Shown here one piece after another: positions 47,976-50,232 of a stretch of 64,000 bases of DNA. The DNA is from Byssochlamys sp. IMV 00236. Taxonomy: Eukaryota > Ascomycota > Eurotiomycetes > Eurotiales > Thermoascaceae. Both the position numbers and the translations under genes were made by a program. The notes under the pieces were generated by a model. That model was not told where the DNA came from. It ran no database searches and was given only the letters and a program-made list of their open reading frames with translations. The stretch spans positions 269,437 through 333,436 of the forward strand of contig MSJH02000650.1 of NCBI GenBank assembly GCA_001931875.2, given 5' to 3'. Every line of letters begins with the position of its first letter. The stretch's first letter is position 1.

Positions 47976-50232
47976 ATGGCTTCTGATGCCGTCGTGCCCG
48001 TCCTGCCCGAGGGGGCAGGATACGGGGTAGTTGTCGGTATTGGCTTCTTCTTTGCTCTCGTCATGGCCGGTGTTTCTTGGATGCAGGTCCGTGTACAATC
48101 CCCAGCATGTGAAAAGCTGATGCTGACTTCAAGTAGAACAAATATACGCAGTACTCAACGAAGACAAGTGAGGAATTCAATACGGCCAGTAGAAGTGTGA
48201 AGCCCGGCTTGATCGCTAGCGGTGTTGTTTCAGCATGGACATGGGCTGCTACTTTACTTCAAAGCAGTACTGTAGCTTACGAGTATGGAATTTCGGGACC
48301 ATTCTGGGTATGCTCACCAAATATCAACCTTTTTCGGAAGATTATTCTGACTTGAGATAGTGTTAGTTGTATCCTATATTGATTCATTGTGTCTGCGGAA
48401 GAGTACTCACACCATGGTACAGATGCCGCAGGAGCAACAGTACAGATTTTCATGTTTTCAGTACTTGCATGCAAGGTGAAACAGAATGCTCCTTACTGCC
48501 ATACGTACTTGGAGATAGTCTACCATCGATATGGCAGAGTCACTCACCTTGTCTTCATCTTCTTTGCCATGATGACCAACATTCTGGTGGCTAGTCAGCT
48601 TCTGCTTGGTGGCAGTGCCGTCGTTACAGCCCTAACGGGAATGAACGTATATGCAGCCGTCTTTTTGATCCCACTGGGTGTCTGCGTCTATGTTGTTCTT
48701 GGCGGTCTTCGAGCTACTTTTCTTTGTATGTGAACTACATCCTCGTCAGATTGCGATGATATTGGCACGAGGAAGGAGACTAATATGATTATACAGGCGA
48801 CTACTCTCATACGGTGATTTTGATGATCATTATACTTTATTTCATGTTCACAACGTACACATCCAGTGATCTGATCGGATCACCTACGGAGATGTACGAG
48901 CTCTTGAAGGAAGCTTCCATAAAGAGGCCTGTGGCTGGTAATACTGACGGCTCTTATTTGACACTGAAGTCCAACTACGGTCTCATATTCGGTGTTATCC
49001 AGCTCTGCTCTGGAATGGGAACTGTCTTCCTAGACCAAGGCTACTGGCAGAGAGCAATTGCAAGTCGTCCCTCTAGCGCTGTGCGAGCGTACATTATGGG
49101 AGGCTTTGCGTGGTTCGCCATTCCCTTTGGCTTCTCTACAACTCTCGGTCTGGCTGCCGTTGCTCTCACAGATAACCCTCGTTATCCGACATACCCGAAC
49201 AACATGACCACAGCGCAGGTATCAGCTGGTCTCTCTGCTCCATTTGCAGCAGCCGCGTTGCTAGGAAAGCACGGTGCTGTAGCGTTGCTTATTACGCTTT
49301 TTATGGCCGTAACGTCCTCATCTGCGTCTGAGCTCATTGCGGTGTCATCTATCCTTACTTTCGACATTTACAAAGTCTATATCAAACCGTCGGCTAGTCC
49401 CAAGGAGCTGATTTTTGTATCGCACGTCATGATCTGCATTTTTGGTGTTATCATGGCAGTTTTCGCATGCATCTGGAATGCCATCGGTATCGACCTGGGC
49501 TGGCTGTTCCTTGTTATGGGTCTTCTTATCGGCGGAGCCGTCTTCCCAGCTGCGTTTACTGTCACCTGGAAAGGTCAGACAAAAGCAGGAGCCATCTCTG
49601 GAGCGATCTGTGGTCTCATTGCTGGCCTCACGGCATGGCTTGCTGAATGCAAAGTCTACTACGGAGAGCTCAACGTCACCACGACTGGGCAATCATACCC
49701 AACTCTTGCTGGAAACATGGCTGCCGTGCTCACTGGCCTACTTGTATCAGTGGTCGTCTCAGTTATCAAACCCGACGATTTCGACTGGGAAATCACCCGG
49801 GCCATCAACGCTCCAGCTGCTGGCGAGAATCCGATCATAGTTCAGACAGGTGGTGAAGACCCTAACCACAATCACAATCTCCAAACTGTGCAAGACGAAG
49901 AAAAGGAGATGATAGAAGACGAAGCTGTGATCGATGACCCCAAGCGTCTCAGGCGGGCGTTCATCCTTGCCGTCACGGCGTCGACCGTTCTCTCATTCAT
50001 CATGGACTTCCTGATTCCCATTCCGATGTTCTTGAGCCACTACGTCTTCTCTAAAGGGTTCTTCATCGCATGGGTGGTCATCTCGTTCATTTGGGTCTTT
50101 GGAGCGGTTGCCTTATGCGGTATCTTGCCCATCTGGGAAACTAGACGGTTCTTTAAGGAATTGTTTATTGAGATCTTTGGAATATCCAGCACGAAGCCCA
50201 AATCGGAAAAGACCACACAGGAGAGTGAATAG
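47976..50232 (+). CDS. DUR3-type urea/polyamine:proton symporter (SSS family)
   Basis: Best model: exons 47976-48086, 48137-48307, a single base at 48361, 48423-48725 and 48797-50232 (2,022 nt, 673 aa). A plasma-membrane solute:sodium-symporter family protein with about 14-15 hydrophobic helices. Features are [18 protein letters not shown] (TM1), [34 protein letters not shown] (TM2, the SSS sodium-site region), [43 protein letters not shown] and [26 protein letters not shown] (TM8 region). A long acidic loop (about 49860-49940) precedes the last helices. After GPFW, the conserved YAAGATVQI block is only reached in frame if one T is spliced in. The alternative single intron 48308-48403 inserts SHHGTD into that block instead (679 aa). 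The GATA cluster upstream and divergent carbamoylase support a nitrogen-uptake role. Urea versus polyamine versus allantoin-type substrate is not decided. Confidence 0.87.

What the first reader, a model, noticed from the sequence alone, without database searches (positions are those of the whole stretch)
48308..48422. Possible one-nucleotide exon in a DUR3-type transporter gene
Exon 2 ends TTC TGG and the next conserved block ([23 protein letters not shown]) starts two bases after an acceptor at 48421-48422. Direct joining breaks frame. If a single T at 48361 is kept as an exon, the codons become TGG-TAT-GCC and give [11 protein letters not shown], the sequence expected in DUR3 proteins. The flanking introns would be 53 nt (gtatgc..ctgac..gatag) and 61 nt (gttagt..ctcac..tacag), each with donor, branch and acceptor signals of normal quality. 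The alternative single intron ending at 48403 has a purine-rich acceptor and inserts six residues into a conserved block. One-nucleotide exons are extremely rare.
Basis: partly seen in the sequence, partly recalled or inferred. Interest (0 to 1): 0.88.

Follow-up and report, generated by a model that had tools for sequence, protein, structure and literature searches.

The report
One-nucleotide exon in fungal transporter gene
A mould gene for a urea-transporter-like protein appears to contain an exon of a single letter, needed to complete one conserved amino acid, and the same oddity seems to be shared, and missed by annotators, in many related fungi.

Summary
In a DUR3-type transporter gene (window 47976-50232, +), exon 2 ends TTC TGG at 48307 and the next conserved exon starts AT GCC at 48423. 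Direct joining breaks the frame. Keeping the single T at 48361 gives an unbroken 673-aa protein with [11 protein letters not shown]. It is the only micro-exon that fits between those outer sites, and none of 22 in-frame single-intron solutions gives FWYAAG. The motif is in 75 of 75 fetched prokaryotic loci and 98 of 141 listed protein models. Published models fail exactly here: 27 of 28 Eurotiales-clade models covering this part are abnormal. In 33 of 33 abnormal models that keep the AAG block, the residue before it is Y, N, H or D (codon N-A-[TC]), as expected if the exon starts at the second base of the Tyr codon. A paralogue has an ordinary intron at the same W|Y point. The restored Tyr95 corresponds to Tyr106 of Aspergillus nidulans UreA. 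One-nucleotide exons are already known (plant APC11, VPS55; Fusarium CYP621A), so this is a new member of a known kind.

The parts
47976..48086 (+). Exon 1 of the DUR3-type transporter gene (ATG at 47976)
   Evidence: Translation and homology
48087..48136 (+). Intron 1, 50 nt, gtccgt...ctgac...agtag
   Evidence: joined protein matches homologues
48137..48307 (+). Exon 2, ends TTC TGG (Phe93-Trp94)
48308..48360 (+). Intron 2, 53 nt, gtatgc...ctgac (48347-48351)...gatag; phase 0, same position as an ordinary intron in the paralogue on G000:C799 (L004:782-836)
48361..48361 (+). Exon 3, one nucleotide, T: first base of the Tyr95 codon (TAT)
   Evidence: Only micro-exon solution; frame and motif; comparative evidence
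48362..48422 (+). Intron 3, 61 nt, gttagt...ctcac (48406-48410)...tacag; phase 1
   Evidence: an acceptor just before A[TC]-GC is inferred in 33 of 33 odd models that keep the AAG block
48423..48725 (+). Exon 4, starts AT GCC GCA GGA (rest of Tyr95, then AAGATVQI)
48726..48796 (+). Intron 4, 71 nt, gtatgt...tacag; its boundary was used as a control
48797..50232 (+). Exon 5 to the stop; protein of 673 aa in all, sodium:solute symporter family
   Evidence: family scans of the near-identical P0001

Best explanation
The T at 48361 is a real one-nucleotide coding exon. Two short U2-type introns (48308-48360 and 48362-48422) lie one base apart and are both removed. The T is joined between TGG and AT, so the mRNA reads TGG TAT GCC. 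Shown here: the sequence anatomy, the uniqueness of the solution, the frame and motif restoration, and the comparative pattern in protein models. Inferred: the splicing itself. Because the acceptor AG (48359-48360) and the donor GT (48362-48363) are too close to be bound by two spliceosomes at once, the introns are probably removed one after the other, as in recursive splicing. The W|Y intron (phase 0) is probably the older one, because a paralogue has it; a second intron then became established one base downstream, inside the Tyr codon. The tyrosine so completed corresponds to Tyr106 of Aspergillus nidulans UreA, a residue of the substrate pathway, so exact splicing should be under strong selection. 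The arrangement is probably shared by the Eurotiales clade of this gene and possibly by other Pezizomycotina.
For: (1) Only this micro-exon (up to 40 nt tried) fits between donor 48308 and acceptor 48422 with introns of at least 38 nt; none of 22 in-frame single GT/GC-AG introns yields FWYAAG. (2) The joined gene is one open frame of 673 aa; its best match, P. variotii P0001, differs only by the extra V at this point and two substitutions. (3) FWYA[AST]GA is in 75 of 75 prokaryotic loci fetched (the best of a similarity-selected set, some loci overlapping), in the solved DUR3 9j7c, and FWY-type motifs are in 98 of 141 listed models. (4) 27 of 28 Eurotiales-clade models that hold the N-terminal half are abnormal here (8 of the 28 are P. 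variotii), while the intron-4 boundary is intact in 31 of 33. (5) In 33 of 33 abnormal models that keep the AAG block the preceding residue is D (18), N (8), Y (5) or H (2), i.e. codon N-A-[TC]. (6) 14 of those 33 read GPFWV, as expected from TGG followed by a GT donor. (7) Two Aspergillus models (P0029 FWCEY, P0050 FWCES) read T followed by G[TC]GA[AG], as if a T|GTGA donor were read through. (8) The paralogue L004 has TGG|gtaaga...gatag|TACGCT at the same point. (9) On a tree built from the part after the site, 29 of 30 rows of the Eurotiales clade carry the odd label.
Against: There is no transcript evidence; none could be reached. The comparative evidence is from protein models, not DNA, of the other fungi; no eukaryotic genome other than the window's own could be searched. 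P0001 (FWVYAAG) is from P. variotii, whose reference genome was annotated with Illumina transcripts (PMC6300479, passages), and that model does not use the one-nucleotide exon. The A. californicus model (P0039) has exact FWYAAG, which could mean intron loss or a correct model. Outside the Eurotiales clade 97 of 108 models are exact, and 4 of the 11 abnormal ones (P0090, P0110, P0124, P0131) also fail the intron-4 control, so these may simply be poor models. The branch motif of the second intron (ctcac) is not the commonest type (recalled). A bare AGTGT is not rare by chance (6.3%).
Confidence: 0.9

Rival explanations
1. One GC-AG intron, 48312-48422, giving [12 protein letters not shown] with one extra valine; this is what the P. 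variotii model P0001 implies.
For: In frame; it reproduces P0001 at this point, and that species' reference annotation had transcripts available (PMC6300479, passages). Two Hyaloscypha models also read FWVYAAG.
Against: The donor TAT|GCTCAC is far from the strong consensus that GC donors usually need (recalled). It inserts a residue into a motif with no insertion in 75 of 75 prokaryotic loci and 98 of 141 listed models. In other genera the matching shift gives N, H or D in place of Y (FWVN, FWVH, FWVD), so it looks like gene-finders moving the donor by four bases to repair the frame.
Confidence: 0.04
2. One intron, 48308-48403, giving [12 protein letters not shown] with six extra residues.
For: In frame, canonical GT and AG.
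Against: The acceptor tgcggaagag is purine-rich; six residues would be inserted into a transmembrane block that is uninterrupted in 75 of 75 prokaryotic loci and 98 of 141 models; none of the 8 P. variotii models seen uses it.
Confidence: 0.02
3. One intron running further into the coding sequence (48308-48445 giving FWIFMFS, or to the acceptor before GTG AAA CAG as in P. variotii strain models).
For: 48308-48445 is in frame. Penicillium lagena P0055 reads FWIFMF, and six P. variotii strain models skip the block.
Against: It deletes 8 or more residues, including the positions of UreA Y106 and A110 in transmembrane helix 3, whose changes impair urea uptake (PMC4077062, section 5 part 1). Most listed relatives keep the block.
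Confidence: 0.02
4. A spliceosomal twin intron (stwintron): the whole 115 nt is removed as nested introns, and the gene is a frameshifted pseudogene or an allele with a lost base.
For: Two introns side by side with an interrupted donor are known in Aspergillus (PMC5639578 passages, PMC6616335 listing and start of abstract).
Against: Removing all 115 nt breaks the frame. The same phase mismatch is inferred in several genera, and the rest of the frame is intact, so neither a pseudogene nor an assembly error fits well.
Confidence: 0.02

Closest known systems
CYP621A one-nucleotide exon of Fusarium (Nelson and Syed 2026, PMC12940212)
   Same: Nuclear gene of a filamentous ascomycete; a single base flanked by AG and GT; phase mismatch inside a conserved motif; most public gene models wrong at the site.
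   Different: Different gene and genus; the base is G in the middle of a Gly codon, here T at the start of a Tyr codon; that case has RNA reads. It is reported within one genus; here the inferred spread is across an order and perhaps further.
APC11 one-nucleotide exon of plants (Guo and Liu 2015, PMC4674806)
   Same: Single base between AG and GT, two introns, required for the frame.
   Different: Plant gene; base A within a stretch of 422 nt; shown by cDNA and reporter constructs.
VPS55 one-nucleotide exon of land plants (PMC8831610, passages)
   Same: Widely conserved single-base exon, missing from annotations, with gene copies lacking it.
   Different: Plant gene; RNA-seq and RT-PCR support; alternative retention seen in some lineages.
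Stwintrons of fungi (e.g. PMC5639578, passages)
   Same: Two consecutive splicing reactions on adjoining introns.
   Different: Stwintrons leave nothing behind; here one base must stay in the mRNA.
Recursive splice sites (ratchet points; PMC8605326, start of abstract only)
   Same: Acceptor and donor next to each other, stepwise splicing.
   Different: No base is kept between them; described in long Drosophila introns, whereas these introns are 53 and 61 nt.

Membership tests
One-nucleotide exon (APC11, VPS55, CYP621A kind) | A single base preceded by AG and followed by GT | tested here: met
   gatag-T-gttagt at 48356-48367
One-nucleotide exon (APC11, VPS55, CYP621A kind) | Two flanking introns of viable length, each with donor, branch-like motif and acceptor | tested here: met
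   53 nt with ctgac, 61 nt with ctcac; motifs by inspection
One-nucleotide exon (APC11, VPS55, CYP621A kind) | The base is needed for the reading frame and no other splicing tried gives the conserved sequence | tested here: met
One-nucleotide exon (APC11, VPS55, CYP621A kind) | Conserved in orthologues | tested here: inconclusive
   Indirect evidence from protein models only; no orthologue DNA available
One-nucleotide exon (APC11, VPS55, CYP621A kind) | The base is present in mature transcripts | not testable with these tools
   No RNA reads or cDNA collection is held
DUR3-type transporter, sodium:solute symporter family | SSF domain and full-length similarity to DUR3 | tested here: met
   P0001, which differs from the window protein by one insertion and two substitutions, matches PF00474 and TIGR00813 above cut-off; the window protein matches DUR3 chains 9j7c, 9x5u and 9vim at E 4.4e-155 or better
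DUR3-type transporter, sodium:solute symporter family | Transports urea | not testable with these tools
   The gene may be the orthologue of A. nidulans AN7373 (P0008 carries the name AN7373.2), a paralogue said not to transport urea significantly (PMC4077062)
Stwintron | The whole nested unit is removed and the flanking exons join in frame | tested here: not met
   Removal of 48308-48422 as one unit shifts the frame

The most novel reading that the evidence does not exclude
The one-nucleotide exon is ancient: it existed before Eurotiomycetes, Leotiomycetes, Sordariomycetes and Dothideomycetes separated, has been kept in many lineages and lost by intron loss in others (for example the Chaetothyriales sampled here), and sits on the substrate-pathway tyrosine. 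It would then be the most widely conserved one-base exon known outside plants, and its stepwise splicing could act as an on/off switch, since skipping the T shifts the frame.
Probability: 0.35. Interest if true: 0.75.

Novelty: new member of a known kind. Interest (0 to 1): 0.62.

Why it matters
One-nucleotide exons are the lower limit of what splicing can do; I found only three cases in print in nuclear genes (APC11, VPS55, CYP621A). A conserved fungal example in short introns would allow genetic tests, in tractable laboratory moulds, of how two splice sites one base apart are used in turn. It would also correct the gene models of a group of transporters. The 2014 analysis of A. nidulans UreA chose Tyr106 because it is conserved in characterised urea transporters but not in paralogues including AN7373. 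If AN7373 has this exon, its apparent difference at that site may be an annotation artefact (inference; the AN7373 sequence itself was not seen here).

Tried and rejected
Intron duplication as the origin of the second intron: the two introns share CGGAAGAnTAnTC, but local similarity is no better than in shuffles (p = 0.147). Mobile intron: no second match to 48290-48440 in the genome, in a search that skips common words. Donor usage in this genome: GTTAGT 3 seen against 0.5 expected and GTATGC 4 against 0.65 in 94,495 bases. This is weak, since all motif hits together were 228 against 193.8 and the finding's own first intron fits the pattern. Orthologue DNA: the viral collection gave none; the prokaryote collection gave archaeal and bacterial relatives, used as the intronless yardstick. 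A published report of this case: none found in the listings of searches for one-nucleotide exons, stwintron/Aspergillus/microexon, urea transporter and intron, microexon and DUR3 or urea transporter terms (20 of 273 papers listed), fungal microexons (15 of 37 listed) and AN7373. That covers only the open-licence library.

Papers, what was seen: PMC12940212 parts 1 and 2 of 3; PMC4674806 part 1 of 3; PMC8831610, PMC5639578, PMC6300479 and PMC9783183 passages only; PMC4077062 section 5 part 1 of 2 and passages; PMC6616335 and PMC8605326 listing and start of abstract only. Fekete et al. 2017 on a one-nucleotide intron shift: title in a reference list only, text not held.

Full report
What is there. 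The window holds a gene of five exons, counting the single T, on the + strand for a DUR3-type sodium:solute symporter. DUR3 structures are its best PDB matches, and the near-identical P0001 matches PF00474. Its nearest protein is P0001 of Paecilomyces variotii: one inserted residue, the V at this site, and two substitutions, S396T and I574V. The window's genome is G000, 47.4 Mb in 840 contigs.

The problem. Exon 2 ends TTC TGG at 48307, followed by gtatgc. The next conserved exon begins AT GCC GCA GGA at 48423, preceded by tacag. Joining them gives a frameshift with stops; adding one base restores the frame. An enumeration of GT-AG and GC-AG introns around the site (38 to 220 nt) found 22 single introns that keep the frame without a stop, and none gives FWYAAG. 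With the outer sites fixed, exactly one micro-exon of length 1, 4, 7 and so on (up to 40 nt) is possible: the T at 48361, with introns of 53 and 61 nt.

Is the motif trustworthy? FWYA[AST]GA is present in 75 of 75 prokaryotic loci (84 occurrences). These loci are the best of 94 relatives found by two peptide patterns, and some overlap on one contig. The motif is in the solved DUR3 9j7c (FWYASGAT; its species was not shown). It is also in 98 of the 141 models collected from the best-120 lists of three searches, most of them fungal and four unnamed (regular-expression count). The restored Tyr95 sits at the place of UreA Tyr106: with a constant offset of 11, W82, W84, T87, G99, Y106 and A110 of UreA fall on W71, W73, T76, G88, Y95 and A99 here (UreA residues from PMC4077062 and PMC9783183). 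In UreA, Y106A keeps about 14% of urea uptake, and the mutant grows on urea like the deletion strain.

Comparative evidence. The published models fail at this point. I grouped 33 models as the Eurotiales clade by name and tree, including one filed under Tricholoma matsutake 945 that nests there and the unnamed P0070. Of these, 28 hold the N-terminal half (8 of them P. variotii), and only A. californicus P0039 has the exact motif. At the boundary of intron 4, used as a control, 31 of 33 are intact. Outside that group 97 of 108 are exact. The 11 exceptions are Amorphotheca, Melanomma, two Hyaloscypha, two Emmonsiellopsis, Scytalidium, Geosmithia, Glarea and two Hymenoscyphus; four of these 11 (P0090, P0110, P0124, P0131) also fail the intron-4 control, so they are weaker witnesses. 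In all 33 odd models that keep the AAG block, the residue before it is D, N, Y or H. These are the residues with codon N-A-T or N-A-C, so in each the exon appears to begin with the last two bases of the Tyr codon, and gene-finders have supplied a first base from elsewhere. 14 of the 33 read GPFWV, which fits TGG followed by GT. Moving the donor four bases along (GTNN|GT) is an easy way for software to mend the frame. Two models (A. mulundensis P0029, A. lucknowensis P0050) read FWC-E, i.e. T followed by G[TC]GA[AG], which looks like AG|T|GTGA read through its donor. These inferences come from proteins; I had no DNA of these species.

History. A tree was built from the part after the site for 71 of the 141 proteins that I picked (40 of the 43 odd, 31 of the 98 exact). 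The odd label needs 8 changes (shuffled mean 23.5, 0 of 500 shuffles as low) and marks 29 of 30 rows of the Eurotiales clade. The tree is a quick one and its deepest forks are weak. In the window's own genome the paralogue on contig C799 (L004) has one ordinary phase-0 intron at the same W|Y point, ending gatag|TACGCT. So the first intron is probably the older one and the second was gained one base downstream. Odd models in four classes suggest that the gain is old, with later losses, but mis-annotation for other reasons is not excluded outside the Eurotiales.

Chance. AGTGT arises in 6.3% of shuffles of the intron; with a GTNNGT donor and a branch motif before it, in 6 of 20,000. The criteria were chosen after seeing the site.

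Mechanism. Acceptor and donor are one base apart, so the two introns can hardly be handled at the same time and are probably removed in sequence (inference). The order is unknown. A stwintron does not explain the case, because it would remove the T as well and break the frame.

Against. There is no RNA evidence. The P. variotii model P0001 implies a GC donor and adds a valine, although the reference genome of that species was annotated with Illumina transcripts (PMC6300479, passages); that P0001 is from that strain is my inference.

Novelty. One-nucleotide exons are published for APC11 and VPS55 of plants (PMC4674806, PMC8831610) and for CYP621A of Fusarium (PMC12940212, 2026, with RNA reads). 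I found no report for this gene in the searches listed under Tried and rejected. It is a new member of a known kind; what is unusual is the inferred breadth of conservation and its place in the substrate-pathway tyrosine.

Noticed in passing
G000 (whole assembly): The assembly is 47.4 Mb in 840 contigs, although the DUR3 gene is essentially that of P. variotii, whose reference genome is about 30.1 Mb (PMC6300479). The assembly may be mixed or duplicated.
   Followed up: no
P0019: A protein filed under the mushroom Tricholoma matsutake 945 falls inside the Eurotiales clade with the same odd site (FWDAAG): a contaminated record or a transferred gene.
   Followed up: no
L004 (G000:C799:231111-235394): The main match of this DUR3-like paralogue reads through five stop codons (1 TGA, 4 TAG), either introns or a decayed copy; it is the copy with the ordinary W|Y intron.
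   Followed up: partly
PMC12940212 and PMC8831610: The 2026 Fusarium paper calls its case the second one-nucleotide exon known, but VPS55 of land plants was reported in 2022.
   Followed up: partly
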